Shown in pieces: positions 5,322 through 28,850 of a stretch of 34,082 bases of DNA. This DNA is from Prosthecobacter sp. (GTDB lineage: Bacteria; Verrucomicrobiota; Verrucomicrobiia; Verrucomicrobiales; Verrucomicrobiaceae). Position numbers and translations under genes: made by a program. The stretch is from positions 1 through 34,082 of the forward strand of contig JAURHS010000022.1 of assembly GCA_030833205.1 (NCBI GenBank), read 5' to 3'. The first letter of the stretch is position 1, and the number at the start of each line of letters is the position of its first letter. The notes below the pieces were generated by a model. The model saw only the letters and a list, made by a program, of their open reading frames with translations. It was not told where the DNA came from and made no database searches.

Positions 5322-5402
5322 GGGCCATGCTTGCGGCAGCCCATCGCCTTGTCGAATCCTTTGTGTGCCAGCCTTGCCCACCGCGCAGGCGTAGATCAAA
5401 CC

Positions 5403-8167: not shown

Positions 8168-8233
8168 GAATGGCTTGGACAGGTCCAGCTCAAATTATGA
8201 GTGGGCACCTCGGGCTGCGCATCAATCTTTACA

Positions 8234-8301: not shown

Positions 8302-11300
8302 ATGAAAGCCTTTGTCGCACTTGCCGCCTTGTTGCCGCTGGTCCTGCGCGCCCACGATTTGCCAAGCACGGACAAGGAAGCCCTGCGCGCTCATCTGCTG
8401 GAGGAATACCTGCAGCAGCATCCCGGAAAACCGATGACCAGGCTCAAGGCAAGGCCAGCACCCCAGGCCCTGCCCAAGACCCTGCGCCGTCCGGTGAATG
8501 TGGCCGCCGCCTCTGCCTTTGATTTCACTGCCCTGCTGGGCGCCGCCGCGGCGTTGCCGCCCTCAGGCAATGGCCTGCTGATGGCGGCCTCCTTCGCGCC
8601 CTTCAAGCCCAAGGTGCGTTTCAACTGGGACTCCAGCACCTTCTTTCTGGAATCCGACAACATGCCAGAGGGCATGCCCAACCGCATGTTTGGCATCACC
8701 ACCTGGCAGCAGCAGGTGCCCATTGCCGCAGCCTATTTTGCCCACTCCATCAGCAACGAAAATGACGCCGCCTCCCTCGGCTACCAGCAGCCCAATGTCT
8801 GGCGCATCCCGCTGGTGCCCGTGCCCTCGGCCTCGCCGATCACCATTTACAATCCACCGGCCCCGCCCACCAACTTTCTGCGCGGCGCCGTGGCCTTGGC
8901 CTCCAATGGCGTGGCCATCTTCAATCCCTCCAACAACGGCGGCAATGTCTCCTATGAAATCGGAGAACTCGACATCTACGGAGGCCACTGCGGGCTGGCC
9001 GATGACTACCACTATCACATCGTGCCAACGCACCTTTACAGCCGCTTCGGTGGCCCGCTGGGCGATGACAAGCCCGCCGCCTGGGCCTTGGATGGATACC
9101 CCATCTATGGCTTCGTGGAGCCCGATGGCAGTGCCAGGCAGGGCTTGGACAACGAGGGCGGCCATGACCACGGCAATGGCTGGGGTTACCACTACCATGC
9201 GGTGGGCAACACCAGCGTGGACGCCACACATCCCTTTGGCACGCCGCAGTCGCCCTACTTGATGAAGGCCTTCCATGGCACGGTGGTCAACTACGGCAAT
9301 CAGGTCGACGGCCAGCCTGCTGTTGGCAATCTGCGCGGCGATGGCACCGGGGGTTACAATGCCAAGGCAGTGGCCGGCGCCTACATTGTGGCGATGATGA
9401 ACCCGGCACCGCTGACCACCGATGGCAACGGCCATCTCAATCTGGTGTCCGGCGTCAGCTTGACCAACTGCGTCACTACCTACGGCAGCAGCACGGTGAG
9501 CTGCAGCAGCACGGCATCGCTGACCGTTGGCCATGCGGTGGTCGGTTATGGCGTGGCCAACAATGCCAGAATCAAGACCATTCTCAGCGGCAACAGCTTT
9601 GAGCTGAGTCAGCCGGCACTGGCCAGCAGCAGCGGCAGGAGCTTTAGCGTGGTGCCCATGACCACCGCCTCCGCGGACGCCTGGTTGATGCGGGTCAACA
9701 TGGGCGGCGTGGATTACGATGAATGCTGGACGCTCAATCGCAAGGCCCTGCCAAGGTCGTTGACCATGACCTGGCGCGCGCAGGCCCTGATCGGCGGAGC
9801 CCTTGGCGGGCCGGTGCTCACCACCACCCAGACTTACACGCCCACGGCAGGCTCGGCCTCTGGCAACCGCATCACCGCCTACCCGATGGCCGCGTGGTCA
9901 GAGGTCAAACTGCCGGACACCTCGCAGGCCATCAGCAGCACCAACACCTTTGGCGAGGACAGTGATTACGCCACCGCTCCCCAAGCCAATCCACAGTCGT
10001 TCACCGACAACGGCAACGGCACCATCACCGACAATGTCACCGGGCTGATGTGGCAGAAGTTGGATGCCGGTGAGATGACCTGGGAAAACGCAGTGACCAA
10101 CGCCGCCAGCCAGACCACAGGCGGCTACAGCGATTGGCGCCTGCCCAACCCGCATGAACTCATGAGTCTGTTCAACTACGAGGCGGGCAATCCGGCAATG
10201 AACTCCACCTACTTTCCGCTCAATGGCCTTGGCGCGGAGTACTGGTGGAGCCGCGACAGCTTTGGCATCAGCACCAGCAATGTTTGGGCGGTCAACGCAG
10301 GCGGCGGTGTCGGCCCCAAGCCCAAGAGCGAAACGATCAGCGCCGGCGGCAGCCTGCGCTACCACGCGCGCTATGTCCGTCTGGCTCAGGCCAACATGAC
10401 GCACAACTACATCAATCATCTCGATGGCACAGTCACCGACACGGACACCGCGCTGATGTGGACGCAGATGCCGGGCAGCGCAATGACCTGGGAGGCGGCC
10501 TTGAGTTGGGCGGAGAACCTCAGCGCGGGCGGCTACAGTGATTGGCGCCTGCCCAATATCAAGGAGTTGCAGACCCTCACGGATTACGCGCTGGCGAGCT
10601 CAAGCAGCGCCTCAGCCAATCTCAAGCCCGCCCTGAATCGCACGCTCTTTGCCAAGACCATGAGCCCCTGCGGATTGACCTCCGGCAGCGCCGTCATCAC
10701 CACCAACGACACCAGCGACCTGGCGGTGGGCATGACGGTTGTCGACCCCTTCAGCGTGGCCGGGGCCTACATTGACCACGCCACCGCACCCTACATCACG
10801 GCCATCAACCCCAACATCAGCTTCACCTTGAGCACTGCTGCCAAAGCCACCAAGAGCAATCTCATCCTGCGCGCCTTGCCTCGTGCCACCGCATATTGGT
10901 CCTCCACTTCCAACAAGGGCACGCCCACGGAAGCCTGGTTGTTGGAGATGGGCGTCAACACCAGCGTGCCGGCCAATGAGGGGCCCAATCGAGGGGCGCA
11001 GGGCATCATCAGCTATCAGGCCAAGACCGCCTCCTTCCCGGCCTTCGCGGTGCGCAGCGCCACCCTGACCACCAGCCTGAGCGTGACGCTGGCTGGCAAC
11101 ACCCTCACGGACTCATTGGGCACAGTCAGCTTTGGCAATGTCGATGTGGGCAGCACACAGAGCAAGACCTTCACCATCACCAACACCGGCAGCACGACGC
11201 TCAACATCAGTGGACTGAGCCTCGATGGCACGGGCGGCAATTCATTTGCGGTCGTCACCACGCCCGCCGCAACCTTGGCTGCAGGGGCCAGCAGCGACTT

Positions 11301-14300
11301 CAGCCTGAGCTTCACACCACAGAGCTTTGGCAACAAGGTTGCGGCCCTGCACATCGCCAGTGATGATGCCGGCAATCCCAGTTTTGACATCAACCTCGCA
11401 GGCAGCGGATACATTGCGCCGCCAACCATCAGTCAGGTGGGGCTCAATCCCATTTCGCCGACCAGCAGCGACAGCGCCAATATCACCGCGCGCATCAGCC
11501 CCGGAGCCTTTGGCAGCATCAGCAGCGTGAGTCTGCAGTATGATTTTGGACCGCAGGTCACTGCCGATGTGTTCCGCGAGACCTTCGCCATGACCGCCTC
11601 CAACAACTGGGCGGGCAGTGGCGCACTCAACGCCTGGTCGACCTCGGGGGCGGGTGCCACAAGGCAGGCCAACTTTGGCAGCAACCGCAGCGCGCCCATC
11701 ACGCTGAGCAACTGCGGGACTGTTGAAGGCAGCAACACAGTGACCTGCGGCAGCACCGCCAACCTCTGGCCGGGCATGATCCTCATCGGGCCGGGTCTTG
11801 CCGCCAACTGCAGCATTGCCAGCATTGGCAGTGGCACCACGCTGCAGCTCAATGCCCCAGCCACGGCCACCAGCAACAGCGCCACACTGACCGCCAACGG
11901 CCTGAGCCTCACGAATTGCACGACCAGCGCAGGCAGCAACACGGTGAGCTGTGACAGCACGCTGGGCCTGGTCGTCGGCATGTCGCTGAGCGGCACCGGG
12001 CTGGCCAACAACGCCACGGTCAGCAGCATCACCAGCGGCAGCAGTTTTCTGATGAGCGCCAATCCCCTCACGCCCGGCACGGGCCTGACTCTGACCGTCA
12101 GCGGCAACGCCCTGGAATTTCAGGGCGCGTCCGCTAGCCTGAGCACGGCCACCGCCACCTCTCCTGCCATCAATGCCACAGGCAGCGCCGGCTTTGTGGA
12201 GTTCTACGTGCAGACCCGTGATCTCAACAGTCTCTTGCCCAACAACCAATGGACCTTTCAGGTTTCACCGGATGGCGGCACGACCTGGAACACCCGCCTG
12301 ACTGAGGATTGGAGCGGCAGCAGCCTCAGCCTGAACAATGTGGTGACCAATGCCGCGGGCAACGCAGGTGGCAGCAGCACCGTGACCTGCGCCAGCACCG
12401 TCGGCTTGAGTGTGGGCCGAAGTGTCTCCTCCCTGCCTGTGTATGTCACCGGCAACACGACGGCTGGCAGCGCGATCGTCACCTCCACCACCACTGGCAA
12501 TCTCAAGGTGGGCATGTTTGTCACCAGCACGGGAACGACTCTTCCCGCTGCCGTCCGCATTCTCAGCATTGATTCTGCCTCGCAGTTTACCATGACCGCC
12601 AACGCCGGGGCCAACGGCACGGCCATCAACATCGCCGCCACTGTCTTCGCGGGCAATGCCACCGTCGCCAGCATCACCAATTCAACCAGCTTCACCCTCA
12701 GCGCGGCGGCCTACGCCGACACCAGCGCAGCGCCGATCAGCGCCTTTGCCAGCAGCCTCAATCACGGCTTCACCACCAAGGCCGATGGCGGCTCCCAGCC
12801 CTACCGCTACGCGCTCGATGCCAGCGAGCGCAGCGCCAACCTGAAGCTCCGCTTTCAATATGCGGGTGGCACGGTGACGCAGCCCACGCGGGCGCCACGA
12901 GTCAGCATTGACGACATTGTGGTCAACAGCACGCAGGGGCTTGCGCCCGTCACTCTGGCGATGTTCGACGACGGCCAACACGGCGATGGCGCCGCCAATG
13001 ACGGAGTGTGGGGCGCCAGCATTCCGCCCCAGGCCGATGGGGCCACGCTGTATTACCGCATCATTGCCAATGACGCCTTGGCGGGCGCCAGCACCAGCAG
13101 CAACGCCAGCTTTACAGTGGCACCTGCCCCAACCATCAGCACAACCTCGCCGCTGCCTGCCGGCAGCACGCTCACTGCCTACTCTCAAACCCTGAGCGCC
13201 AGCGGCGGCAGTGGCAGCGGCTATGTCTGGTCTCTGGTCAGTGGCGCCCTGCCTGCGGGACTGAGCCTGAGCAGCAGCGGCCTGCTCAACGGCACGGCGA
13301 CGGCTGCGGGCAATTTCAATTTCAGCGTTGAAGTCACCGACTCGGCGGGGCGCAGCGCCATCAAGCCAATGACCCTGAGCATCAGCGCTCAGACGGCCCC
13401 CAACATTGTCGTCATCATCACCGACGACCAAGGCTGGGGCGATGTGGGCTATCACAGCCCGCCAGGCCAGGTGCCGATCCAAACGCCGACGATGGACAGC
13501 TTTGGCACCAGCCGCGCCGGTTCCATCCGTCTCGAACGCTTTTATGCGACAACGGTTTGTTCCGTCACGCGCTCCACCTTCCTGACCGGACGCAACGCCA
13601 TCCGCCACGCCACCAACAACGAGCGCGGCACCGACCTGAGCGAGCACCTGCTGCCGCAGACCCTCAAAAGCGCGGGCTACCAGACCTACCTCTGCGGCAA
13701 GTGGCACATGGGCGGCAGCGACAAGAACACGAGCTACCTGTCGGTCAACGGCGTCAACACCCGCATCATCAAGGAAGGCCTGCAGTACGCACCCTACAAC
13801 CGGGGCTTTGATTCGCACTACGGTCAATACAGCGGTGCGATCGATTACTTCACCCACATGAGCGCCGAGGCCGAGGTGCCTGACAAACCGGACTGGTGGC
13901 TTAACGGCGTGCAACAGGACGGTCCCAGCGAACACACCGACTCACAGAACACCGGCGGCTGGTCGCCCAACCTTCTTGCCGACAAAGCGATCTCACACAT
14001 TCAAAACCGAGATCCCTCCAAGCCAATGTACCTGCATCTGGCTTTCAACAGCATTCATGGGCCGGTCTCCGCGCCGCCTGCCCTCATCACCAAGTACCAA
14101 AACCTTGGCGTCACCAACACCAACCGGCGCCTCATCAGTGCCGCCGTGGATGGAATGGATCAGGCCATGGGCCGAGTGCTTGCTGCACTGGACGCCGCAG
14201 GCATCACCAACAACACCCTCGTGATCTGGTTTGGCGACAACGGCGGCGATGAAATCAAGGGCTCACTCAACGATCCACTGCGTGGCGACAAGGGCGACAG

Positions 14301-17300
14301 TTACGACGGCGGCCTGCGTGAAGTGGCCGGCATTTCCTGGCCCGGCGTGTTGCCCGAGGGCGGCGTCATCAGCCATCAGTATGTTTGGGTGGGCGACCTG
14401 TTCCCCACGATCTGTGCGGCCACCGGCGTGACGCCGCAAAACAGCAAGCCTCTGGATGGCGTCAATCTTTGGCCCAATCTGCTGACAGCCACCAGCAGCA
14501 ACAGCACCACGGAGCGCCCCGGCAACGCGCCGCTGATCACCGATACGGCGGCGCCCATCGCGATCAAAAAATTCATCGACCCGGTTGGCGGCGGCAGCAA
14601 GGACTTCAAGCTGCGACGCTCCCGCGTGGGCAACAGCACAGTGACCGAACTTTTCAATCTCAGCACGGACGAATACGAAACCACCGACCTCTCCGGCATT
14701 GCCGCCTATGCCTCAATCGTGACGGAACTGACCAACAGCATCACCGCCATCAGCCCCGACAACAACAAGCCCTACATCGGACCAGCACTGATCACGGCCT
14801 CCGTTCCCGCTGGTGGCGGCATCGAACTCTATGCCCCCTTCACCAGCTACAAGGCCCCCACGGTGCAGTGGCGCAAAAACGGAGTCAACATCCCAGGGGC
14901 TACCAGCTTCACCCAAGTCACTGACACTCTGGGCACCTTGGTCAGCGGAAGTTACACCACCAAGCTGATGATCAGCAACGCCTCGGCTGCCGATGCCGCC
15001 ACCTATGATGTGATGGTCAGCAATGTTGGCGGCAGCAGCAGCAGCGCCTCTGGAGTGCTCAGCGTCACCAGTGCCGCGCCGCAATTGAATCTGCCAGTCT
15101 TCAGCAAGGGCAGCACGGCGACCTTGACCTGGGCTGCAGTGCCAGGTGCCGTGAATTACAGCATCGAACGCAGCAGCACCAGTGACTTCAGCGTGGTGAC
15201 CGAGACTCTGACCAGCAGCGTCACCTCGGTGACCTTTACCAATCTGGCTGCAGGCAGCAGCCATTACTACCGGGCCCGCGCAGGCGACGGCAGCAGCTTT
15301 GGCGCCGCAGGAGCCGTGGTCAGCTCGACGCAGGATGCCGCCTCACCCATCCTGCTGATCACTTCTCCCGCCAATGCCATCACCGTCACCTCAGGCAGCA
15401 TCACGCTGCGCGGCAGCGCCGTGGATGCACTCTCCGGCATCAGCTCCGTCACGGTCAACGGCGTTGCCGCCGCCAGCGCCAATGGATTTGCGGATTGGAG
15501 CCTCACCCTGCCTCTTGTCCCCGGACTCAACACCCTGACGGCAACCGCCACGGACGGCGCCAGCCCTGATGGCAACAGCAGCCAAACCAGCATCAGCCTG
15601 ACCTACCGCGCCGACGGCCCCAACATCAGTGCCGTGTCAGTCACGCCCACCGTACCCAACTTTCTCGACCCCACGCGCATTCTGGCACAGGTCGCTCCAG
15701 CGCCGGGGGGAAGCGTCGCCTCCGTACGCGTCGATTATGACAGTGGCACGCCCCTGAGCCTGCCCGTGCTGCGGGAGACCTTTACCAACACAAGCTCCAA
15801 CAACTGGAACGGAAGCGCCGCGCTCAATGCTTGGACCACGGTGGGCGCAGGCAATGTGCGCCAGGCGGTGGCTCAATCCAACCGCACGGCAGCGATCGCC
15901 ATCAGCAATGCAAGCACCACGGCAGGCAGCAGCACCGTGACCTGTGCCAGCACCGCGGGCCTTTGGCCGGGCATGTTGATCACCGGGCCCAACATTCCCG
16001 GCAGCATCAATGGCAGCAACACGGGCAACACCACGGTCGCCAGCGTGAGCAATGCCACCAGCTTTGTGCTCTCGCAGTCGGCCACCGCCAGCGGCAGTGG
16101 CCTCAACCTGACTGCCTGCGGAGTGACCCTCAGCAATGCCACAACCAGCGCGGCAAGCGTTGTTGTGACCTGCGACAGCACGGCGGGCCTTATCAGTGGC
16201 ATGGCGCTCAGCGGGACTGGCCTTGCCGGCAATGCCACCGTGGCCAGCGTCAGCAGCGCCACCAGCTTCAGCATGAATGTGGCGCCCACCACGCCAGGAA
16301 GCGGCCTGACCCTTGCTGCCAGCGGCGCTGCCGCCGAATTCAATGGAGGCACGGCCAACCTCTCCGAGAGTATGTTGACCACCACCAACGCCATCAACAC
16401 CACTGGAGCCGCCGGTTTCGTCGAGTTTTATGTGCAGACCCGCGATCTGTTTGCCAACAACAATTGCGGCTGGGCTTTTCAGGTGTCCTCAGACAATGGC
16501 GCGACCTGGAACACCCGCCTCAGTGAGGATTGGACCAGTAAGACCGTCAACCTCAGCGCCGTGATCACCAATGCGGGTGCCGCCAGTGCCGGCAGCACCA
16601 GCGTCACCTGTGCAGACACCAGCGCGTTGAGCGCGGGGCGCAGCCTGCTGATGGCGCCCATCAATGTGACTCTTGGCCTGACCCTGGGCAGCAGCACCGC
16701 CACCTGCAGCAACACCACCGGTCTGCTTCCGGGCATGTTCATCAGCGCCACAGGCATCCCCAACAACACCCGCATCGGCAGCATCACGCCCAATGTGAGT
16801 CTTACCCTGGTGACCGGCAACCCTGGCACGGCGGTCAGCGCCACGGCCAGCAATGCCAGTGCCGCGGCCGCTGCCTCCTGTTTCGCCTCTGGCACAACCA
16901 TCAGCAGCATCACCAATGCCACCACCTTTGTGATCAGCACGGCCGCCTACGCCAATACCGCGTCGGCCTCATTTGCGGCCTACGCCACCACGATCAATCA
17001 TGGCTTTACGCTCTTCCATTACGATCTTGTCGGCGCGGAATTGGGCCCACAGACCAAGATACGGTTTCAGGCCACCGGCTATTCCGCAGTGGCGCCGACA
17101 CGAAGCCCGCGCATCAGCATTGACGATCTGGTGGTGGCGACCACAGCACCACCGCCAACGCTGAGCATCACCCTTTTCGATGATGGCCTGCATGGCGATG
17201 GAGCGGCCAATGATGGGCTTTGGGGCGGCAGTATCCCCGCCCTGCCTGGAGGCACCAGCGTCAGCTTCAAGGTCATTGCCACCGGTGGTGACGGCAGCAG

Positions 17301-20300
17301 CTCAACCAACCCGGCCAGCGGTGTCTATGGTTATGTGGTCAATGCCACGCTGACGGATGCCACGGTGAGCAGGGCGGAGTTTCTGGGCATTCCAACCAGC
17401 AGCGGCATCACCCTGAACCTTGTCTTTGCCAGCGATCAGGAGGTCTATGTTGAGTACGGCACGGTCGCCGGCAGGTTTGATCAAAGCACCCCTCCAGCGA
17501 TCTTTCCAGCAGCAGCCGGGCCGGTTGAAATCAGCCTCAGTGGTCTGAATGCAGACTGCGATTATTTTTACCGCCTGCGCCACCGCGCCGCGGGCACACA
17601 GGCCGCCTTTGCTGCCAGACCTGAGCGCCGCTTCCACACGGCGCGCCCGGCCAATCGGCCCTTCACCTTCACGATCACCGCCGATCCGCATCTCGATGAG
17701 GCCACGGATGTTGACTTGTTCAAGACCACGATGGCCAACATCCGTGCCGATCAGCCCGACCTGCACATTGACTTGGGCGACATCTTCATGACAGATAAGT
17801 TGGCCACCACGCGCGCCGACCTTGGTGGTGGTCTGATCAACGCAGAGCGCGTCATGCTGCGAGCGTCCATGTTGCGCAGTCTCTTCGAGGAGACCTGCCA
17901 CAGCGTGCCGTTTTTCTACACCTCGGGCAATCATGAGGCGGAGTATGGCTATCTCTTTGCCGCCGCCGCGGACAAACAAAACAACATTCCTGCATGGAAT
18001 CTCAGGGCGCGCAAGGCGCTCTACCCGACCCCGGTGCCCAGTGCCTTCTATGGCGGCAACAGCACGCCACTGGACTACAACGGCGGCAGCTTGGGCCTGC
18101 TTGAAAACTACTACGCCTGGCAATGGGGCGATGCGTTGTTCATCGTTCTGGATCCCTTCTGGAACACGATGGCCAACCCAACCAGCGCTGCCGGCGGCAA
18201 CTGGAATTGGAGTCTGGGCAAGGCTCAGTACGACTGGCTGGCACAGACCCTGCGCAACAGCAGCGCCAAGTTCCGCTTTGTCTTCACCCATCATCTTGTG
18301 GGCGGCACCGACTCAGCGCGCGGCGGCACCGAGGTGGCCCGCCGCTATGAGTGGGGCGGACGCAACGCCGATGACAGCGCCGGCTTTGCGCTGAATCGCC
18401 CGGGCTGGGAGAAGCCCATCCATGATCTGCTCAAGGAACATGGGGTTCAGGCTGTCTTCCATGGCCACGATCACCTCTATGGCTATCAAACCCTCGATGG
18501 CATTGTCTATTTGGAGTGCCCACAGCCCGGCACGCCAAATTTCACCAGTCTCGGCAGCGCTGCTGATGGACAGTATAGCGATGGCGTTCTGCTCCCCAAC
18601 AGCGGCCACATCCGAGTTGAGGTCGGGGTAGAGCAGGCGGTTTGCTCCTATGTTCGAGCCTACCGCAGCTCGGATGAAAATTTCACACGCCACAATCGCG
18701 ACATCGGCCACAGCTTCACGATGGCTGCCCTGCCCATGGCCATACTGGAGCTGCGCGATGATTCCGGCGTCATCCTTGGAACAGGCGATACGCTTGACTT
18801 TGGCAATGTGACTACGGGCCGTCCGGCAACGATGAACCTGAAAGTGCACAACACAGGCAATCTCGAATTGAGCCTCTCGGCCATCCAGTGCAGCGGGCCG
18901 TGGCTCTGCGGACTCAACAGCGGCACCTTGCCTGCAGGCGGCAGCCTTGATCTGTCCCTAACCCTTACTGCACTTGCTTCGGGAGCCTTGCAGGGAACTC
19001 TGGCGCTAGTAAGCAATGACTTTCTCAACCCCGCTTTTAGCGTCAACCTTGCTGCACATGCAGGTGCCGCCCAGAGTCTGAGCTTTGCTCCGATTGGCAT
19101 GCAAGATGCAGGGGCGTTGCTGACTCCAAGCGCCACGGCAAGCAGCGGCCTGCCCGTATCCTTCACCGTCACGCAGGGCGCCGATTTGGTGCAGTGGGAG
19201 GGTGGCGCCCTGCGGTTGAACAAAAGCGGCAGCGTGACCCTGCGTGCGGTTCAAGCTGGCAACGCCGAGTACGGCGCTGTCAGTGCCTCACAAAGCTTTC
19301 TGGTGCGCCGGCTCTCCTCGGAGTTGCGTCTCGATCCTCCACCGCCAGCCTCCGCGTGGTGGCAGAGCAGCGTGATGCTTGAAACCCGCTCGGCACAACA
19401 CGGTGGGACCGTCAGCCTTCAAGTGACCAGCGGGCCCGGCCTGCTGCAGGGCAATAGGCTGTCCTTCACTGGGAAGGGCAATGTCATGCTGCGCGCCTTT
19501 TTACCCGCCACAGATGTCTACGATGCGGGGTTGGTTGAATTCAGCATTGTGGCACGCGACGCGGTGGCACTGAATGCCATCAACGGTGGCTTCAGTGGAC
19601 GGGTCAACGATCAGCTCAAAGGTCGCGTCAGCTTCAGCAATCTCGCCGGTCTTGAAGAGCCCGTCACCGTGGAGTTTCTCGGCCTGCCCAGCCATGGCAG
19701 GGTTTCGTGGGTGGGATCTGCAGGAGATTTTCTCTATCAGCCCGACCCGGGCTTTGAAGGGGAAGACCGCTTCACCTTTTGTGCGCGGCAGCTTGGAGAG
19801 GCAAGCAATGTGGCGGAGGTGTTGCTTTTGATTCGATCCCGTTTGGCTGATTGGACCTGGCAGGGCGGCCAAGCTGGCGCCAACGCCAAGGCTGTGCTCA
19901 GCCCTGTCAACGGCGATGACAGAAGCCCATGCCCCGGGGCGCGAGCAGCCTCAGTGCACTGGAGCGACAATGATGGTCGACGGATGCTTTTTGGGGGCTG
20001 GGGTTATGGCGGCAACAGTGGTCCCGGGTTACTGGCTGATCTCTGGTGTCAGGACCCAATCACAGCGCGTTGGCTGCTGCTCAAGGAGCCGACGGAGATC
20101 AACGCCTCACGCGTGGTCGGCGAGGTTGGAGTCGAGCGATCTGGCCAGTCTCCTGGCGGCCGCAGCGAGGCCTGCTGGTGGATTGGATCTGATGGCGCAC
20201 TGTGGTTGTTCGGCGGACAGGGTTTGGACAGTCACGGCAAGCCTGCGCTCATGGCAGACCTCTGGCGCCTGAACCTGACGACTCTTTTGTGGACCTGCAT

Positions 20301-23300
20301 CAAGGATGGCAGCCCCAATCAAAATGGTAGCGCCGCTGCACCAGGGGCGCGCAGTGCGGCAGCGTGCTGGCGCGACGATCAAGGCCGCTTCTTGATGTTT
20401 GGAGGGCGGGGTCTGGGGACTTCAGGTAGCAGTGTCGGCGCGCTGAGTGATCTTTGGGCATTTGATCCTTCAAGCGGTCATTGGAGTGCTGTGGGGGGCA
20501 GCCGCGACCTCAATGCTGGAACGATCATGGATGGCAGCACGGCTTGGCCCGCAGCACGCTCCCACGCTGCGCTCTGGAAGGACTCCCAGCGGGGCATCCT
20601 TCTTTTCGCCGGTGCAGGAACCAATTCGTCTCCACTCAATGATCTGTGGTGTTATCAACCCTTTCTCAATCGTTGGGTAATCCTGCGTGCCGCGAGTGCA
20701 AGGCCACAAACCTCCATGATCGGTGAAATGGGGCAGGCAGGTGAGGGAGACTGGCCAGGCAGTCGCAGCGCAGCCACCTTCTGGAGCGATGCTGCGGGCA
20801 ACCACTGGCTCATTGGCGGCTACGGGCTGGGCAGCGCTGGAGCGGGGGCATTGGGTGATGTCTGGTGCCTGCAACGCGAGTCACTGCAATGGGCCTGCAT
20901 GAAGGGGCCGTTGTCAGCAGGCAGCCTGCCAGCGCCTGGCAGGCTTGGTGAGGCTTCCGACGCGACCAGCCCGGGGGCACGATCGCAATCCATGGCATGG
21001 TCAGCCAACGACGGTGATGTCTGGCTGTATGGAGGGCGAAACGCGAGCAGGCTTTACGGTGAGAACTGGAGTCTGGACTTGCCGGCGCTGCCCCAGCTCA
21101 GCCAAACCCAGGCCCGCGTTGCTGCGCCCATGGACCAGGGACAGGTCAGCCTTGAACTCTCCACGCGGGTGCAAACGCAGGGGCAGGCTTGCCGCGTGTG
21201 GTGGCGCATCGGCCGTCAACCCGACCTGAAAGATGCGGTGGAAAGCAGCTCCGATTCACTCACGGGAACCCAGTCAAGCGTGACCTCCTCGCTTCTGGTC
21301 AACCAAAGCGCCGCCACTTGGTTTTACCTTCAGGCCTGCTGCGAAAATGCTGCTGGTGTCGCCTTTTCACCCATCCTCAGCCTAGGCACTGAATCTGGGC
21401 TAAATCCGGCGCGCGTGCAATGGGAACAGACAACAAGCTCGATCGACGAGGCACAAATACTGGATGGCACGCCCGAAGCGGGGGTGCTGCGCGTCACGCT
21501 GCAACTCGATCGTCCTGCAGCAGGCATCATCATCGTCCCCATAGCACTTCAAGGTGAGGCCATTGAAGGTCGGGATTACATTCCCCCCGCCGCCGAGGTT
21601 TCCTTCCTCAACGGACAGACTCAAAGCTGGTTTGAACTACGGCTCAAGGACGACGGGATTCAAGAGGCACGAGAGAGCCTACAGATCACTCTGGGCGAGC
21701 CAAGCGGCCCGGCAGCGTTGGGTGCAGTGACGACCCATCAAGTGTTCATTGAGGACAATGATGTCGCGCCACAGATCCAAATCCAGCCGCGCTCGCAGTT
21801 TGCCAAAATTGGGGGGCCTGCAATCACGCTGGACTATGCCCTGTCTGCGGGCACCGAACCCTTCAGCCATCAATGGTCAAAGAAGGGCTTGGCTCTACCC
21901 GCCGCACGAGGCGCAGCATTGACCCTGCCAGCAATCAGCGCCAGTGCGGGTTTCTATGAGCTCACCATCTCCAACGCCACTGGCAGCGACAGCAGTACGC
22001 GCGCTCATTTGGTCATGCTGCAGCCCCTGCCTGCATTGGTCTCCGCGAAGTTGGGTGGCAGCGTGGCGCTCAAACAAATCGCTTTTGGATCCGGTCTGCC
22101 GCTGAGCTATCAGTGGTATCGTAAAATCGGTTTATCTGATGTGCCCTTGAGCCCGGCGGAATATTCAGGCGCTGATAGCGCAACGCTAAGCCTGAGCAAT
22201 CTCAGCGTCGAACACAGCGGCGAGTACTTCTGCCGTGTGTCGAATGAAACTGGGCAGGGCGAGTGCCACGCCGTCCTTCAGGTTGCGGGGGTGGCGCCCG
22301 AGATTTTGCCTCCAACTCTGCCTCAGGGATTCATTGGTGAGGTCTACCAGTTTCAGCTGCAGCTGAAGGATCCAATCAACGGCGGTTCTGGGAGCTTTGC
22401 TGCATCGGGTCTGCCAACGGGGCTTTCACTCACTGCTGGGGGCATGATTACGGGCAGGCCCACCTCAACAGCAGTCAACAAAACCGTGGTCTTTACGGCA
22501 CGCAACAGTTTGGGCAACGGCAAGAGCATTTCAGCAGAGATTGACATTGATGCCATGCCAACCAACATCCCAGGGACTTATCTTTCGCTTGGCAGTTTGG
22601 AGGGCGAGGCCATGAGGCTGGATGTCACGCTCAACACCTCTGCCGCCCTCAGCCTCAAGATCACCAGTGATGATGGCAGCATCAGCGCGCGTGCATTGGG
22701 AGTCTATGACTCCGCCAAAGACCAACTGAGCGCATCCTGCCTCATCAAACCACCTGGACGATTCGCGCCGCTGCTGCTAGAACTGACCATGAGCGGCGAC
22801 CATCTCAGCGGTCGCTGGGTGCAGCCACTGAATTTTCAGGTGCTTGGCGGGTTCAGTGGATATCGGCAGGTCTGGAACACAACGCGCAGCCCGCGCAACC
22901 AAAGTGGCTACCACAACCTGCTGCTGCAACCACCCGCCGAGTTACGAGGGGATCTGGATCTGCCGCAGGGAACTGGCTACGCAGCCTTCACAATTTCCGC
23001 CACCAACGGCGGGCTGTCACTAAGCTCCCGCGATGCTCTGGGAGTTTCCTACACGGGCTCGAGCTTTCTGGGGCCGGAGGGCCAGGTGGCGGTGGTGTGC
23101 CATAATTCCAGCAATGCCAGCACACTCTTTGGCGTCCTTAACCTGCGTGCCTCACCCGCCTCAATCCAAGACCCCAACCCTGTCGTGGGCAATTTGCAGT
23201 GGAGTAAGGCGGCAATCGCTAGCCTCAGCCACCGCACTTATCGCCGTGGTTTTGAGACCTTGGATCTCGAGGCGGTGGGCGGCCGTTATCGCGCGCCGCC

Positions 23301-23676: not shown

Positions 23677-23693
23677 AGCCAACCCAACACCTG

Positions 23694-26054
23694 ATGCCAA
23701 TCCCTCGCATTTTTCTCATCGCTCTTGCCCCGATTTCAATCGAGCTGCTGGCTCATACGCCTGATCCCTCCATCAGCGGTCGCTCAGAGCTGCGGCGCAG
23801 CCAGCTTGTGGCACAGTGGCAACGCCATCAACCCAAGATTGCCTCGGCCTCCTCCATGCTCCCACTTGCCGCTGCCGCCGCGCAAAGCGCGCAGCAGGCT
23901 CCGGCAACAGCGAAGCCGTTTTTGCCCTTCACCAAACTCGACCTGCATGCCGACGCTGAATTCCTCTGGGTCGGCTCCAATGGACTGCCTGATCACGACA
24001 TGATGGTGGGCATCACCGCGTGGCAGCAGCAGCTGCCGCTGCCACAAGACTACCGCGGCGACAACGCCTGGCGCCTGCCACTCAAGCCGCGACCTGCATC
24101 CAAGCCTGCCATGCTTCACAATCAGTTTCTTCGCGGCGCCGTGGCGCTGGCCGTCAATGGCGTGCCCATCTTCAATCCACAAAACAACCGCGGTGAAGTG
24201 GCGCAGGAAATCGGTGAGCTTGACCAATGGGGCGGGCACTGCGGCCGCGCCGATGACTATCACTACCACATCGCGCCACTGCATCTTCAGGCCCAGGCTG
24301 GTGTCGGCATGCCCATTGCCTTTGGATTGGATGGCTACCCGCTCTACGGACCCAACGAGCCCAAGGGTGGTGCACCGCGAAACCTGGATCTCTGCCATGG
24401 CCACGAGCACGACGCCATGGGCTATCATTATCATGCCAGCCTGCGCATGCCCTATGTGATGGCAGGCTTTCACGGCGAAGTCGGCATGCAGGGCGATGGC
24501 GTGGAGCCACAGCCGCGCGCCCAACCCCTGCGCGAAGCGCTGCAGGCCCTGCGAGGGGCCAGCATCAACGAATTCAAACGCCACCCCAAGGGCTTTGCCG
24601 TCGGCTACAAGCTGCAGGGCCAACAGCACTGGGTACGCTATGAAATGCTCTCAGAGACCCAGTACCGTTTTGAGTTCATTGACGGCAGGGGGCAGCGCGA
24701 GGAGCAACTCTACAACCGTCGCAGCGGCGTCGGCGCAGACCGACCCAAGGGGCAAGCCAGGCAGAGTGGGCGCATGCCGCGCGCCAGCGATCCTGATCCC
24801 GCTGCTGCCGAGCCCGCCGCGGCTCCACAATCGCCCGTCAGCGGTTTTCAACTCAGCAGCCCCGCCTTTGGCAACGGCGGCACCCTGCCACTTGCCTTTA
24901 GCGGCAATGGCGCGGGACAAAGCCCACCGCTGCAGTGGAAAGGCGAGCCGGTGGGCACCCGCGCCTTTGCCCTGCTCATGGAGCACACCGACCGCGAAGG
25001 CGAAGTCAAAAGCTATTGGCTGCTGGCCAACCTTCCAGCATCCCTGCACAGCCTCGCCGCCAACGCGCAGGGTGTTGGCGCAGTTGGCAGCAGTTTCCGC
25101 GGCAAGCAGGGATACGAGCCGCCACACTCGCGAGGCCCCGGCCTCAAGACCTACACCCTTCGCTTGTTTGCCCTCTCCAAGACTCTATCCCTGCCCGCCG
25201 ATCAGAAGACATGGCAGCGGCAATCCCTGCTCCAAGCCATGCAGGGCCTGGTGCTGGGCAGCGCGGTATTGGAGGTGACTCATGACAGCAGCGCTGCGGA
25301 GGCATCCGCCCCTGAGCCCACCTCAACGCGCAAGCTCACGCCGACGAAGACAAGCGCACAGAGTGCCGGTCTGGGCTCCAGCGTCCCCGTTGTTGAGCCC
25401 GCAAGGCCCAAGGGCGGCAAGAACAAGGACGAGCCCAAAGGCAAGGCCGGCGGCCTGATCAAGCCCTCGATGGATGACACTCTCAATCTCAATGTCTATG
25501 CCGACAACTGGTTCATGCTCTACATCAATGGCCGCCTCGCCGCCGTGGACAGCATTCCCTTCACGCCGCACAATGTGATCAGCGTGCAGATCCTCCCGGA
25601 ATACCCGATGACCATCGCCATTCTGGCCAAGGACAATGCCGACCCAACCACGGGTTTGGAATACGGCTCGCAGATTGGTGATGCCGGACTTTGCCTAAAG
25701 TTCTCCGATGGCACAGTGAGCAATGCCAGATGGAAGGCGAAGTCCTTTTTCCATGGGCCCATGGGTGGCAACACGCAAGCTCCCAAGGTCTCAAGGCAGC
25801 CGCTGCCGCCCAACTGGTGGGCTGTGGACTTTGATGACCGCGCCTGGCCACAGGCCAAAACCTACAGCACCGAGGAAGTGGATCCGAAGGCCCCGTTTTT
25901 TGAGGCGGATTTTCAAGGCGCCAGCTTCATCTGGAGTGAGGATCTGGCGCTGGACAACACGGTCATCTTTCGCACCCGCATCGACAAACCAGGATGGAAG
26001 GCGCGTTGGAACACCCAACCCGATCTCGATGTCAGCAAAGCCCCTCAGGAATAA
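23694..26054 (+). CDS. Secreted YHYH-domain protein with PEBP-like and C-terminal lectin-like domains
   Basis: The 786-residue protein has a signal peptide ending near LAHT. A YHYH domain (about 75-270) follows, clearly homologous to that of the upstream giant protein: shared segments are ITAWQQQ/ITTWQQQ, FLRGAVALA.NGV.IFNP, EIGELD..GGHCG.ADDYHYH and LDGYP.YG. YHYH lies at 189-192 and again at 244-247. A PEBP/YbhB-like domain (about 383-530) has SPPLQWKGEP and GPGLKTYTLRLFAL, but lacks the DPDxP and HRY residues of classical PEBP. A Ser/Pro/Lys-rich linker leads to a C-terminal domain (about 590-775) with NWFMLYING, WWAVDFDDRAW and DNTVIFRTRI, resembling galactose-binding-like folds. It starts 17 bases after the giant gene's stop and is followed after 15 bases by the sulfatase gene, so the three probably form one operon. 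Its biochemical role is unknown. Confidence 0.85.
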   Translation: MPIPRIFLIALAPISIELLAHTPDPSISGRSELRRSQLVAQWQRHQPKIASASSMLPLAAAAAQSAQQAPATAKPFLPFTKLDLHADAEFLWVGSNGLPDHDMMVGITAWQQQLPLPQDYRGDNAWRLPLKPRPASKPAMLHNQFLRGAVALAVNGVPIFNPQNNRGEVAQEIGELDQWGGHCGRADDYHYHIAPLHLQAQAGVGMPIAFGLDGYPLYGPNEPKGGAPRNLDLCHGHEHDAMGYHYHASLRMPYVMAGFHGEVGMQGDGVEPQPRAQPLREALQALRGASINEFKRHPKGFAVGYKLQGQQHWVRYEMLSETQYRFEFIDGRGQREEQLYNRRSGVGADRPKGQARQSGRMPRASDPDPAAAEPAAAPQSPVSGFQLSSPAFGNGGTLPLAFSGNGAGQSPPLQWKGEPVGTRAFALLMEHTDREGEVKSYWLLANLPASLHSLAANAQGVGAVGSSFRGKQGYEPPHSRGPGLKTYTLRLFALSKTLSLPADQKTWQRQSLLQAMQGLVLGSAVLEVTHDSSAAEASAPEPTSTRKLTPTKTSAQSAGLGSSVPVVEPARPKGGKNKDEPKGKAGGLIKPSMDDTLNLNVYADNWFMLYINGRLAAVDSIPFTPHNVISVQILPEYPMTIAILAKDNADPTTGLEYGSQIGDAGLCLKFSDGTVSNARWKAKSFFHGPMGGNTQAPKVSRQPLPPNWWAVDFDDRAWPQAKTYSTEEVDPKAPFFEADFQGASFIWSEDLALDNTVIFRTRIDKPGWKARWNTQPDLDVSKAPQE

Positions 26055-26069
26055 CAATCCCCAAGCCTC

Positions 26070-28850
26070 ATGATGCGTCATGCTCTTCCCCTGCTCCTGC
26101 TTGCAGGTGCACTCCATAGCCAGCCTTCACCCAACTTCATCATTCTCATGGGCGAGGCTCAGGGTTGGGCCTCGACCTCGGAGCCACTGGATGATCGCCA
26201 TCCCAAGGAGAGCCAAAGCGATTTCCTGCTGACTCCCAACCTTGATGCGCTGGCCCGGCGAGGCATCCGTTTTTCGGATTTTTATGCGGCATCGCCGCGC
26301 TGCACTCCAACGCGGGCCGCGCTTTTTACCGGGCGCAGCCCGGCGCAATTGGGCATGACCTTTGTCAATGAAGGCGGCGAGGGCAAAAAAAGCGGCGCGC
26401 CCACTCCAGGCTTAAGCCGCGTGGAGAGCCTCACGGAGTTGCCGCTTGGCACGCCCACCATGGGCAGCCTGCTCAAGTCCAGAGGCTACCGCACCGCGCA
26501 TTTCGGCAAGTGGCATGTGGGTCGCAGCGATCCGGCAAGTCTTGGCTATGAACAAAACGACGGAGCCAACAGCAATGACGGCCCCGAGCATGTGCAGGAA
26601 CCCAATCCCACTCAGGCTCATGCCATCACCCGTCTGGGTCTGGAGTTCATTGCCGAGCAGGCCCGTGCCAAACAACCGTTTCTGCTGCAAATCTCCCACT
26701 ATCCCGGCCGCAGCCCTGAAGCGGCTTCTGCCCCCTTCCTCGAAGAAGCCAAGGCCCGCCTTGGCAGCAGGCTTGATGCGATGCGCCTTGGGCTGGCTGC
26801 CGGCAATGCCGAGGCCGATGCGACCTACGGCGAGATCTTTCGCGCACTGCGCGATCACGGTCTGCTTGAAAACACCTACCTCATTTACACGGCCGATCAT
26901 GGCGCCCAAGGCAACCGCGCCAATGGCGGCCTGAAGATGGGCAAGGGCAGTGTGTGGGAAGGCGGCCTGCGCGTGCCCTTGATTGTCGCAGGGCCGCAGA
27001 TCAAGCCCAATCAGTTTGCCCATCAGCGCGCCAGCAGCGTTGACCTGCTGCCCACCGTGCTTGATCTCGCAGGGCTGCCTGCATCCCAATGGCCAAGAGG
27101 CCTTGAGGGCAGCAGCCTAAGACCGCTGTTTGCCGAGGCCAAGGGCGCTGAGCTCAAGCGCGCGCACCCTGAGCTGCTCATCCATTTTCCGCACCACGAC
27201 AAGGATCCGATGGGCCCGGCCTCAGCACTGCTGCAAGGCCCCTGGAAGCTCATCCATTTTTACCGCGACGATCAGTGGCAGCTCTACAACCTCGATGAGG
27301 ATCTTGGCGAAACCAGGGATCTGGCAGCGGCCCAACCGCAGAGACTCGCGCAGCTCAAGGCCGACATGAGCGCGGCCCTGCAGCGCGTGAAGGCGAAGCT
27401 GCCACAGGCTGATCGGACAAGGCCAACCCAACAGGCCGAGCCCCAGCCCACGCAGCCGCAGCAAGGCGGCATGAGCAAGCCAGGCGGCAAGCCAGGGCCG
27501 CAGAAAAAAAACCGTGGGATGGTTGATGCAGGGGGTGGAGGTGCGACGGTTGAGCCCGCGCAGGTGCCTTCGTATTTGGGCAATGCCTGGCTCTGCCGAC
27601 CTGGGGCCGATGTCTGTGATCTCTCCCTGTTGGCATGGCAGGATCTCAAGGTGGAGGTGTTTTTTGGTCAGGCCCAAGGTGAGTTGGCGCAGCACGCTGA
27701 GGTGGCGCTGAGCGCCGGCGTGCCCAAGACCATTTCCCTCAAGCCCCTGCGGCCCAACAGCGCTCAATGCTATCAAGTGCGCTGGCTGCCCAAGGACGGG
27801 CCGCCGGTGCAGGAGGCGCCTGCTTACTTCCACACGCAGCGCCGCGTGGGTGAGGGGTTTCAATTCGCGCTGCAGGCCGACAGTCATTTGGACACGGCCA
27901 CCTCGCCTGAGCTGTATCAGGAAACCCTGCGTCTGGTTGGCGAGGGCGGGCATGACTTTCTCATCGACCTGGGCGACACGACGATGGTCGATAAGTTTGG
28001 CCGTTTCTACACCCGCGCGCAGTCGCAGTATTTGGCCCAACGCTATTATCTGGGACTGATTGCGCACAGCCTGCCTGTCTTCATGGTGCTTGGCAATCAC
28101 GATGGGGAACGCGGCGGCCTTGGCGCAGAGCCGGCGATGGCGTTCTGGAGTCTGCCCAGGCGCAAGGCCTTCTTTCCCAATCCCGAGCCCGGCGGCATTT
28201 ACAGCGGCAATGACTTCAGGCTGCCTGAGTTGGGCCTGTTGCAGAATTACTTCGCCTGGCAATGGGGTGACGCGCTCTTCATCGCGCTGGATCCCTTCTG
28301 GAGTTCAGGCGCCCGCGCCAGCGATGATCCCTGGTCCAGCACTCTTGGTGAGGCCCAGTACCAATGGCTCAAGCGCACGCTGGAGGGCTCGCAGGCGCGC
28401 TACCTGTTTGTGTTGATTCATCACCTCAGCGGCGGCCTGCAGCGCGATAGCCGCGGCGGGGCCAGTGCGGCGCTCAGCGGCGAGTGGGGCGGCCGCGATG
28501 CGCAGGGGCGCGATGCCTTCAAGAGCCGGCGGCCCGGCTGGGAGATGCCGATCCACGCGCTGCTTTGCAAGCATCGCGCCAGCGCGGTGTTTCACGGACA
28601 TGACCACCTCTATGCCCACGAAGAGCTCGAGGGTCTGGTGTATCAGGAGGTGCCGCAACCCGGACACCCTGGTGGCAATGTGGGCAAGGCGCAGGACTAC
28701 GGCTATCGCGGCGCAGTGCTGGGCAGCAGTGGCTTTGTGCAGGTGCAGGTGGATGCGCAGGCCGCCGTCGTTCGCTACATCGGCAGCTCACTGGACCCGA
28801 CGCAAAGCGGCCGCCTTCGCGATGAGTACCGCATCGCGCCGAGGCGCTGA
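26070..28850 (+). CDS. Secreted sulfatase-like and metallophosphoesterase fusion protein
   Basis: The 926-residue protein has a signal peptide (MMRHALPLLLLAGALHSQ). A sulfatase-fold domain (about 20-445) has a standard formylglycine motif CTPTR at Cys 78, GKWHVGR, and GKGSVWEGGLRVP, but the first metal-ligand pair reads GEAQ (28-31) where active sulfatases have DD, and the later pair is D276/H277. A Pro/Gln/Gly/Lys-rich linker (about 447-495) follows. A phosphatase N-domain and a calcineurin-like metallophosphoesterase (about 598-900) come next, with all usual ligands: ADSH (604-606), GD (636), GNHD (676-677), HH (784-785) and GHDH (844-846). The phosphoesterase half is strongly similar to that in the giant protein (NYFAWQWGDALFI.LDPFW, HGHDHLY). 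Phosphate-ester cleavage outside the cytoplasm is likely. Sulfatase activity is doubtful. It is the last gene of the run, convergent with pheT. Confidence 0.88.
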   Translation: MMRHALPLLLLAGALHSQPSPNFIILMGEAQGWASTSEPLDDRHPKESQSDFLLTPNLDALARRGIRFSDFYAASPRCTPTRAALFTGRSPAQLGMTFVNEGGEGKKSGAPTPGLSRVESLTELPLGTPTMGSLLKSRGYRTAHFGKWHVGRSDPASLGYEQNDGANSNDGPEHVQEPNPTQAHAITRLGLEFIAEQARAKQPFLLQISHYPGRSPEAASAPFLEEAKARLGSRLDAMRLGLAAGNAEADATYGEIFRALRDHGLLENTYLIYTADHGAQGNRANGGLKMGKGSVWEGGLRVPLIVAGPQIKPNQFAHQRASSVDLLPTVLDLAGLPASQWPRGLEGSSLRPLFAEAKGAELKRAHPELLIHFPHHDKDPMGPASALLQGPWKLIHFYRDDQWQLYNLDEDLGETRDLAAAQPQRLAQLKADMSAALQRVKAKLPQADRTRPTQQAEPQPTQPQQGGMSKPGGKPGPQKKNRGMVDAGGGGATVEPAQVPSYLGNAWLCRPGADVCDLSLLAWQDLKVEVFFGQAQGELAQHAEVALSAGVPKTISLKPLRPNSAQCYQVRWLPKDGPPVQEAPAYFHTQRRVGEGFQFALQADSHLDTATSPELYQETLRLVGEGGHDFLIDLGDTTMVDKFGRFYTRAQSQYLAQRYYLGLIAHSLPVFMVLGNHDGERGGLGAEPAMAFWSLPRRKAFFPNPEPGGIYSGNDFRLPELGLLQNYFAWQWGDALFIALDPFWSSGARASDDPWSSTLGEAQYQWLKRTLEGSQARYLFVLIHHLSGGLQRDSRGGASAALSGEWGGRDAQGRDAFKSRRPGWEMPIHALLCKHRASAVFHGHDHLYAHEELEGLVYQEVPQPGHPGGNVGKAQDYGYRGAVLGSSGFVQVQVDAQAAVVRYIGSSLDPTQSGRLRDEYRIAPRR

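What the first reader, a model, noticed from the sequence alone, without database searches (positions are those of the whole stretch)
8302..28850. Fused and split versions of one YHYH / sulfatase / metallophosphoesterase set in the same operon
The 5124-residue protein carries YHYH, sulfatase and calcineurin-like phosphoesterase domains in that order. The next two genes carry the same domains in the same order as smaller proteins, with short shared stretches such as AWQWGDALFI and EIGELD..GGHCG.ADDYHYH. Gaps of 17 and 15 bases argue for one transcript. A co-linear paralogous set suggests the three activities act together on one extracellular substrate, for example a sulfated and phosphorylated polymer, and that one set arose from the other by domain fusion or splitting. 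The function is inference; I know of no described system with this layout.
Basis: partly seen in the sequence, partly recalled or inferred. Interest (0 to 1): 0.85.

Follow-up and report, generated by a model that had tools for sequence, protein, structure and literature searches.

The report
Giant and split sulfatase–phosphoesterase kits together
A genome of the Verrucomicrobiaceae group carries, side by side, a 5124-residue protein and a two-gene set that hold the same three enzyme domains in the same order, and the same kit recurs in shuffled and fused forms in other bacteria; it is predicted to be secreted and would likely strip sulfate and phosphate groups from a sugar polymer outside the cell.

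Summary
The giant (8302-23676) and the next two genes carry YHYH, sulfatase and metallophosphoesterase (MPE) domains in the same order, far above chance. In relatives the usual unit is regulator < > YHYH-PEBP-P2C > sulfatase > MPE as separate genes; 25 of 68 family genomes add a giant-type gene, always with a small YHYH gene. Seven fused architectures of these domains were seen: strong evidence that they work together. The two copies are not a recent duplication: giants are one YHYH clade, a window-pair clade is rejected (AU p 0.002), and the two sulfatases fall in different clades. The small-set sulfatase has E-(A/G) in place of the DD metal pair, with DH, and keeps the formylglycine motif; the giant's is canonical. 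Best reading: a predicted secreted, two-component-controlled, perhaps sugar-binding esterase kit for a sulfated/phosphorylated glycan. Substrate and every activity are untested. New variant of a known kind (secreted sulfatase clusters), not a classical polysaccharide-utilisation locus.

The parts
8302..23676 (+). giant protein, 5124 aa, signal-like N terminus
   Evidence: 52 public relatives other than the window's own with YHYH-Lcl-Lcl-sulfatase-MPE in this order
8593..9345 (+). YHYH domain of the giant
10003..11064 (+). two Lcl_C (PF07603) domains of the giant
13393..14754 (+). sulfatase domain of the giant: canonical TDDQGW, GKWH, GDNGG; CSVTR at the formylglycine site
17617..18669 (+). metallophosphoesterase domain of the giant, metal motifs kept (GNHE variant)
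19915..21084 (+). Kelch region of the giant (present in some of its relatives only)
23694..26054 (+). YHYH-PEBP-P2C protein, 786 aa, signal-like N terminus
23919..24539 (+). YHYH domain of the small set
24843..25283 (+). phosphatidylethanolamine-binding-protein (PEBP) domain
25449..26027 (+). 'P2C' domain: about 192 aa, no Pfam match, 55-73% identity to 27 locus rows; weak structural likeness to a GH78 rhamnosidase beta-sandwich and a fungal lectin
26070..28850 (+). sulfatase-MPE fusion protein, 926 aa, signal-like N terminus
26124..27419 (+). sulfatase-fold domain of the E-type: GEAQGW in place of xDDQGW, CTPTR kept, TADHG in place of xxDNG
27837..28793 (+). metallophosphoesterase domain of the small set
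7466..8167 (-). OmpR-type response regulator, divergent from the giant (134 bp between start codons)
6000..7469 (-). sensor histidine kinase, likely partner of the regulator

Best explanation
The locus encodes two anciently separated versions of one predicted secreted enzyme kit, a giant single chain and a YHYH-PEBP-P2C plus sulfatase-MPE pair, that would likely be switched on together by the divergent two-component pair and would likely remove sulfate and phosphate esters from one extracellular glycan. Shown: the domains and their order, the kept metal motifs of both MPE and both YHYH copies, the canonical metal-site motif of the giant's sulfatase, the altered one of the small sulfatase, the recurrent clustering and fusion, and the conserved divergent regulator in relatives. 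Inferred: export (signal-like N termini only); cotranscription (gaps of 17 and 15 bp); sugar binding by P2C (weak structural likeness to a GH78 accessory domain and a lectin); metal-dependent hydrolysis by YHYH (predicted in print, PMC7824862); formylglycine formation in both sulfatases; that giant and split kit act on one substrate. The giant chain would hold the activities at one site, with the split set as a differently tuned complement.
For: Clustering: of 80 public loci chosen by MPE alone, 56 have a same-strand sulfatase within 5 kb, 32 a YHYH (1 of them fused in one frame), 27 P2C, and 38 PEBP within 8 kb. In 23 non-window genomes holding the small MPE, 22 have the sulfatase within 4 kb on the same strand, and YHYH genes number only 1-2 in most genomes (G033 has 3, the fragmented G022 4). 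Seven fused architectures: YHYH-Lcl-Lcl-sulfatase-MPE, sulfatase-MPE, sulfatase-YHYH-PEBP-MPE, sulfatase-YHYH-MPE, YHYH-MPE-sulfatase, YHYH-PEBP-MPE, YHYH-MPE-MPE. Giant-type YHYH: 25 of 68 family genomes, 25 of 25 of these also with a small YHYH; in 7 of the 12 where both lie within 25 kb the giant-type gene ends 17-88 bp before the YHYH-PEBP-P2C gene on the same strand. Regulator: 26 held loci (21 genomes by contig) with a close response regulator, all divergent from the nearest YHYH gene. MPE core Asp/His/GD/GNH/GHDH kept in 53 of 53 giant and 123 of 123 other rows.
Against: Among 123 sampled neighbours no classical glycoside hydrolase, lyase or SusCD-type family is in the 25 commonest of 145 families; only 3-keto-disaccharide hydrolase (PF06439) appears, in 3, so the glycan is a guess. 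The small sulfatase lacks the usual metal pair and an active-site His, so it may have another reaction or none. 13 of 25 giant-bearing genomes have giant and small YHYH on different contigs, and in two with long contigs (G023, G013) they are clearly apart. In G440 and G441, two of the seven close pairs, the giant-type frame is short and has no MPE. 24 of 80 MPE loci lack a nearby same-strand sulfatase and 48 of 80 lack YHYH (some contigs are short). No close regulator lies in the held stretch of several small sets (L001, L013, L141, L142, L153, L155). The window's small-set domains sit on long branches, which could mean relaxed constraint. No expression, secretion or activity data.
Confidence: 0.4

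Rival explanations
1. A sulfur and phosphorus scavenging kit: the enzymes release sulfate and phosphate from small or mixed organic esters under starvation, not from one polymer.
For: Sulfatase plus phosphoesterase without classical glycan-cleaving families among the commonest neighbours; some clusters in other lineages also hold arylsulfotransferase-like genes.
Against: P2C weakly resembles sugar-associated beta-sandwiches; the regulator scores higher against CpxR and OmpR than against PhoB models, all below cut-off; Lcl and Ig-type domains suggest a large surface target (inference).
Confidence: 0.2
2. An envelope-remodelling kit: the enzymes trim sulfate and phosphate from the cell's own exopolysaccharide or outer membrane.
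For: The window's kinase scores best against CpxA and RstB models; no uptake family is among the commonest neighbours apart from two ABC-type ATPases; PEBP domain.
Against: All these NCBIfam scores are far below their cut-offs, so the sensed signal is unknown; several relatives have another regulator pair or an ECF sigma factor nearby.
Confidence: 0.2
3. The small-set sulfatase is a pseudoenzyme or binding protein, and only the giant's sulfatase works.
For: DD to EA, loss of the His seen in canonical rows, DN to DH; long end branch of the window copy.
Against: Cys, Arg and the GKWH Lys/His are kept in every readable E-type row, and DH goes with E in 42 of 42 readable rows, so selection keeps a site; the E-type rows form one clade (100*).
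Confidence: 0.15
4. Recent local duplication followed by fusion or splitting made one set from the other.
For: Same domain order side by side; 38-43% identity for YHYH and MPE.
Against: Giant and small copies separate in all three domain trees; a window-pair YHYH clade is rejected, p-AU 0.002. Caveat: quick trees, and the window's small rows are long branches.
Confidence: 0.02

Closest known systems
Secreted S1 sulfatases (PF00884; solved examples ARSB 1fsu, iota-carrageenan sulfatase 6b0k, kappa-carrageenan sulfatase S1_16 9fo1)
   Same: Fold family, formylglycine-type C-x-x-x-R motif, GKWH, signal-like N termini; the giant's domain aligns best with 1fsu, the small one with 9fo1.
   Different: The giant has Val in place of Pro/Ala in the motif; the small one has an E/DH site in place of DD/DN; both are joined to an MPE.
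Polysaccharide utilisation loci of Verrucomicrobiota and Planctomycetota
   Same: Sulfatase-containing, predicted secreted, with two-component or ECF sigma regulators nearby.
   Different: No classical glycoside hydrolase, lyase or SusCD-type family among the 25 commonest of 145 families in 123 sampled neighbours (PF06439 in 3); none in the window among the genes scanned.
YHYH proteins of jumbo and pelagic phages (PMC7824862, PMC7029224; passages read)
   Same: YHYH core; in PMC7824862 predicted to bind zinc through three His and an Asp and to be a metal-dependent hydrolase.
   Different: Here in cellular gene clusters with PEBP, sulfatase and MPE, not in tail proteins.
Metallophosphoesterases (PF00149), weakly PhoD-like and purple-acid-phosphatase-like
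   Same: D-x-H, GD, GNH, H and GHDH motifs.
   Different: Only E 0.15 to a solved purple acid phosphatase; GD is followed by xxM, not by the xxY of that family (motif recalled); fused or adjacent to a sulfatase.

Membership tests
S1 sulfatase, giant's domain | Pfam PF00884 above cut-off, DD pair, C-x-(P/A)-x-R, GKWH, DN | tested here: met
   147.4 bits against 25; motifs present except that CSVTR has V for P/A
S1 sulfatase, small set's domain | Paired Asp metal ligands (DD) with DN (roles recalled from the textbook S1 site) | tested here: not met
   GEAQGW and TADHG in the window; E in 43 of 79 small-set rows, DH in 42 of 42 readable of these. DH alone is not unusual: one other sulfatase of the same genome has DD with DHG (L125)
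S1 sulfatase, small set's domain | Pfam PF00884 above cut-off and formylglycine motif C-x-P-x-R | tested here: met
   165 bits; CTPTR at residue 78
S1 sulfatase, both copies | Cys converted to formylglycine | not testable with these tools
   The genome holds six PF03781 matches, but whether any is a true formylglycine-generating enzyme was not tested
Metallophosphoesterase PF00149 | Metal-binding D-x-H, GD, GNH, H, GHxH | tested here: met
   Kept in 53 of 53 giant and 123 of 123 other rows at these positions; 39.0 and 39.9 bits
Purple acid phosphatase | GDxxY iron ligand (motif recalled) | tested here: not met
   GDIFM and GDTTM
YHYH PF14240 | Pfam cut-off and the YHYH motif with conserved His/Asp | tested here: met
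   28.8 and 36.4 bits against 25; GGH and DDYHYH kept in 51 of 51 giant and 46 of 46 other rows
YHYH PF14240 | Zinc-dependent hydrolase activity | not testable with these tools
   Prediction in PMC7824862; no solved relative by sequence at E up to 5; no fold match found
Polysaccharide utilisation locus | Glycan-cleaving enzyme and uptake system beside the cluster | tested here: not met
   For the window: the nine flanking proteins scanned are truA, serA, apbE, HK, RR, pheT, pheS, coaX and one without a match. For relatives the test is partial: 123 of 353 neighbours, 25 of 145 families shown
GH78-type N-terminal carbohydrate-associated domain (P2C) | Beta-sandwich with detectable homology to the GH78 domain or a lectin | tested here: inconclusive

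The most novel reading that the evidence does not exclude
A previously undescribed extracellular esterase machine found in more than one phylum: YHYH, PEBP, P2C, a sulfatase-fold enzyme with a rebuilt E/D/H metal site, and an MPE act as one unit that several lineages have fused in their own order, with the giant as an old, separately assembled single-chain version built around a canonical sulfatase. The E-type clade would be a new class of formylglycine enzyme using a transition metal, and P2C a new sugar-binding family.
Probability: 0.32. Interest if true: 0.8.

Novelty: new variant of a known kind. Interest (0 to 1): 0.63.

Why it matters
Sulfatases are abundant in Verrucomicrobiota and Planctomycetota and are usually read as polymer desulfatases acting alone. 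A conserved cassette that ties them to an MPE, to the uncharacterised YHYH family and to a domain without a Pfam family, by gene order and by several fusions, gives a testable partner set for orphan families. A sulfatase clade with a coordinated change of metal-site residues would widen what the formylglycine fold can do. The giant offers a natural one-chain version whose activities can be assayed together.

Tried and rejected

The fused proteins carry no taxon, some rest on one record, and their independence was not counted on a tree. Some of L036-L115 are the same contigs as L001-L035 and L136-L155. Every second giant row was dropped from the MPE and sulfatase trees (150 and 104 rows left); all trees are 'quick' (SH-aLRT only), treekit warned of meeting long branches in the sulfatase tree and of odd composition of the window's small sulfatase. 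In one search, 6 of 79 rows could not be typed; all rows there were found through the cassette, so the E-type's link to it is partly by construction. In one search, 4 of 20 other sulfatases of the window's genome had no readable N-terminal motif; the other 16 had DD, one of them with DHG. A2 used 33 of 35 and A3 27 of 29 locus pieces (near-copies dropped). In one search I left out G436:C8:24558, the second piece of a giant already counted, and added two edge fragments. The window's genome is 88% complete, so 'exactly two' of YHYH and MPE is for the assembled part.
Full report
WHAT IS THERE. The three + strand genes are real and placed as stated. The giant runs from 8302 to 23676 (5124 aa); an ATG at 8170 would add 44 residues, but the N terminus from 8302 (MKAFVALAALLPLVLRA) looks like a signal peptide, as do those of the other two proteins (reading of the sequence; no predictor was run). 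Pfam and NCBIfam give the giant YHYH, two Lcl_C matches, choice-of-anchor D and X, sulfatase, Ig/fn3, metallophosphoesterase (MPE), Kelch, Calx-beta and Ig domains; gene 2 YHYH and PEBP; gene 3 sulfatase and MPE. The shared order YHYH, sulfatase, MPE is therefore right. Identity between copies is 43% (YHYH), 38% (MPE) and 25% (sulfatase), 65-257 bits against at most 26 in 100 shuffles per domain.

THE GIANT IS A FAMILY. A search with residues 1735-3505 of the 5168-aa reading found 57 proteins including the window's own. With domain queries cut from the window, 53 of the 57 carry YHYH, sulfatase and MPE in this order with Lcl matches between YHYH and sulfatase; the four others are P0301 (no YHYH seen), P0307 (sulfatase-MPE, then Lcl), P0308 (no MPE; multicopper-oxidase domains listed) and P0309 (Rhs-type). 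In 39 of 57, the window's own included, the match covers the whole 1771 residues, at 53-70% identity apart from the window's own, so linkers are conserved too; the Kelch part is present in only some.

THE USUAL FORM IS SEPARATE GENES. In 56 genomes (the window's and 55 relatives), MPE was found in 24 and YHYH in 33. The window's genome (88% complete) has two of each, all at this locus. In the 23 other MPE-bearing genomes, 22 have the small-type sulfatase on the same strand within 4 kb (the exception, G021, has the MPE about 4 kb from a contig end), and 16 also have the YHYH-PEBP-P2C gene in the held stretch (for G007 with the giant in between, L035). In G014 and G033 the small YHYH is on another contig than the small MPE. 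The common order is YHYH-PEBP-P2C > sulfatase > MPE. So the window's gene 3 is itself a fusion of two genes that these relatives keep apart. Where MPE was not found, YHYH-PEBP-P2C and sulfatase still sit together with the regulator (G008, G012, G028, G031).

GIANT BESIDE SMALL SET. In the family, 52 of 68 genomes have a YHYH match; adding two edge fragments, 25 genomes have a giant-type YHYH and all 25 also have a small one, while 27 have only the small one. Several giant-type frames are cut by contig ends. In 12 of 25 the two lie within 25 kb; in the other 13 they are on different contigs, and in G023 and G013 the contigs are long enough to say they are apart. In 7 of the 12 (window, G033, G439, G440, G441, G449, G455) the giant-type gene ends 17-88 bp before the YHYH-PEBP-P2C gene on the same strand. 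Two of these seven, G440 and G441, are short forms that end after the sulfatase and hold no MPE. G455 has the window's exact order with sulfatase and MPE unfused.

THE REGULATOR. The window has a response regulator (7466-8167) and histidine kinase (6000-7469) divergent from the giant. Close regulators (at least 335 bits to the window's) occur in 26 held loci from 21 genomes by contig; all 26 are divergent from the nearest YHYH gene, in 17 of the 21 genomes within 1 kb. In G007 and G029 the divergent partner is the giant, as here; otherwise it is the small operon. Loci were fetched for their core genes, so presence is biased, but orientation is not. Several other small sets have no close regulator in the held stretch (L001, L013, L141, L142, L153, L155). 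The regulators share 74-79% identity with the window's in six loci compared. Some other lineages have a different regulator pair whose kinase is nearest to a heavy-metal sensor model, below its cut-off (L048, L067, L095), and ECF sigma factors occur among neighbours. The window's kinase is nearest to CpxA and RstB models but far under their cut-offs, so the signal is unknown.

BEYOND THE FAMILY. Of 80, 56 have a same-strand sulfatase within 5 kb, 31 a YHYH and 1 a YHYH-MPE frame, 27 P2C, 38 PEBP within 8 kb, 6 Lcl within 8 kb. By record title, YHYH, P2C, sulfatase and MPE lie together in Verrucomicrobiota (for example L103, L105) and Planctomycetota (L070, L074, L099); titles of other phyla (L095, L100, L112) may be mis-binned. 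Chance neighbours cannot explain YHYH, which numbers 1-2 in most genomes; sulfatases are common (60 matching stretches in the window's genome), so that part is weaker alone. Fused forms differ in order: SULF-YHYH-PEBP-MPE (P0028, P0029), SULF-YHYH-MPE (P0023), YHYH-MPE-SULF (P0014), YHYH-PEBP-MPE (P0094), YHYH-MPE-MPE (P0030), SULF-MPE (P0003 and others), besides the giants; taxa of these records are not given. Gene orders are shuffled too (L105: P2C > SULF > YHYH-PEBP > MPE). In some Lentisphaerae- and Verrucomicrobia-titled clusters the YHYH-PEBP gene is replaced by an FGE-like-PEBP gene (two scanned) with arylsulfotransferase-like neighbours. In a wider draw MPE at E 1e-40 occurred in only 21 of 387 genomes of the phylum: the cassette is patchy.

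NOT ONE DUPLICATION. YHYH: 54 giant rows against 45 small rows, one branch, 100*, length 0.81; the tree with the two window copies held together is 108 log units worse, p-AU 0.002. MPE: the 27 giant rows kept, with four locus rows that are giant pieces and one single MPE, form a 98*-supported set without the window's small copy. Sulfatase: 42 E-type rows form one 100* clade that holds the window's small copy; the giant's copy lies elsewhere. The window's small copies have long end branches (YHYH 0.3, sulfatase 0.92, MPE 0.87), and these are quick trees.

TWO KINDS OF SULFATASE. Of 79 small-set rows, 43 have (G/A)E(A/G)xGW, 30 have DD, 6 could not be read. Of the E-type, 42 of 42 readable rows have D-H; of the DD type, 30 of 30 have D-N; of the giants, 54 of 54 readable rows have DD with D-N. 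The E-type also lacks the His at the place where most DD rows have '(L/V/I)H' and has 'S(H/Q)Y' or 'D(H/Q)Y' (once CHY) just before, but keeps RCTP(S/T)R and GKWH wherever readable. The commonest giant motifs read CSVTR. Sixteen other sulfatases of the window's genome with a readable start all have DD, one of them with DHG, so DH alone is not special; four could not be read. The E-type therefore looks like a clade with a rebuilt metal site, not random decay (inference from covariation; ligand roles recalled from the textbook S1 site and compared with alignments to solved sulfatases).

HOW IT MOST LIKELY WORKS. The regulator pair senses an unknown outside cue and turns on the set. All products are likely exported. 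P2C, Lcl and Ig-type parts hold the target, likely a glycan; sulfatase and MPE remove sulfate and phosphate, and YHYH would hydrolyse another bond. The giant keeps the activities on one chain; the small set supplies a second, differently tuned sulfatase. Each of these functional steps is inference. Among 123 of 353 neighbours the 25 commonest of 145 families include histidine kinases, response regulators, arylsulfotransferases, ECF sigma factors and 3-keto-disaccharide hydrolase (3 members), but no classical glycoside hydrolase, lyase or SusCD family; this speaks against a classical utilisation locus and leaves S/P scavenging or envelope trimming as serious rivals.

LITERATURE. Searches for YHYH (44 papers, 30 listed, nearly all unrelated by title; 2 with 'YHYH domain', 1 with 'YHYH protein'/PF14240), for giant genes and sulfatases in Verrucomicrobia, and for sulfatase with metallophosphoesterase or arylsulfotransferase found no description of this cassette in the listings. 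Only open-access papers are held. In PMC8857213 a term search found no phosphatase, phosphoesterase or YHYH; PMC5615132 (passages) notes sulfatase genes beside carbohydrate-binding-module and cytochrome genes in freshwater Verrucomicrobia; PMC11992049 (passage) lists YHYH among Pfams of diatom transcripts in temperate waters.

CHANGES ON CHECKING. Confidence in the mechanism was lowered from 0.42 to 0.40, the novel case from 0.33 to 0.32 and interest from 0.64 to 0.63, because two fusions and one 'independent' record were dropped, two close giant-type genes proved to lack the MPE, and DH was seen with DD outside the cassette.

Noticed in passing
L043, L044, L046, L047, L057, L058, L063: A third sulfatase subtype in these clusters: KCECSR in place of CxPxR and GKWQ in place of GKWH; one clade with 100* support. 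It may be an altered or inactive enzyme.
   Followed up: partly
L069, L071, L076, L080, L082, L084, L090: PEBP proteins without YHYH in these clusters; the two that were scanned (L069, L071) carry an FGE-sulfatase-like domain, and arylsulfotransferase-like domains were found in L071, L080, L083 and L084.
   Followed up: partly
P0258, P0259, P0274, P0307, P0308: Some giants list further domains in their precomputed Pfam: FGE-sulfatase (P0258, P0259, P0274, P0307), arylsulfotransferase (P0307), multicopper oxidase (P0308).
   Followed up: no
L146 (G440), L147 (G441): Short giant-type genes (open frames of about 1,860 aa) that end after the sulfatase, without an MPE, directly before the YHYH-PEBP-P2C gene.
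   Followed up: partly
window 23694-28850: All three small-set domains of the window sit on long end branches (0.3, 0.92, 0.87), unlike the giant's: fast evolution of the small set in this genome, perhaps linked to its fusion.
   Followed up: no
P0017, P0019, P0020 and others: 89 of the 120 listed relatives of the sulfatase-MPE protein show two MPE matches and no sulfatase, possibly a large family with tandem MPE domains.
   Followed up: no
L043, L044, L046: An FMN-dependent dehydrogenase-type gene and one or two further genes lie between sulfatase and MPE in one group of relatives.
   Followed up: no
window 4557-5993 + / 4461-5972 -: Two overlapping long open frames on opposite strands between apbE and the histidine kinase; the + frame has no Pfam match. 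Which one is the gene was not decided.
   Followed up: no
L033/L034 (G033 C10): After giant and YHYH-PEBP-P2C come a third, 356-aa YHYH-like protein and a giant-type sulfatase: a different extension of the same cluster.
   Followed up: no
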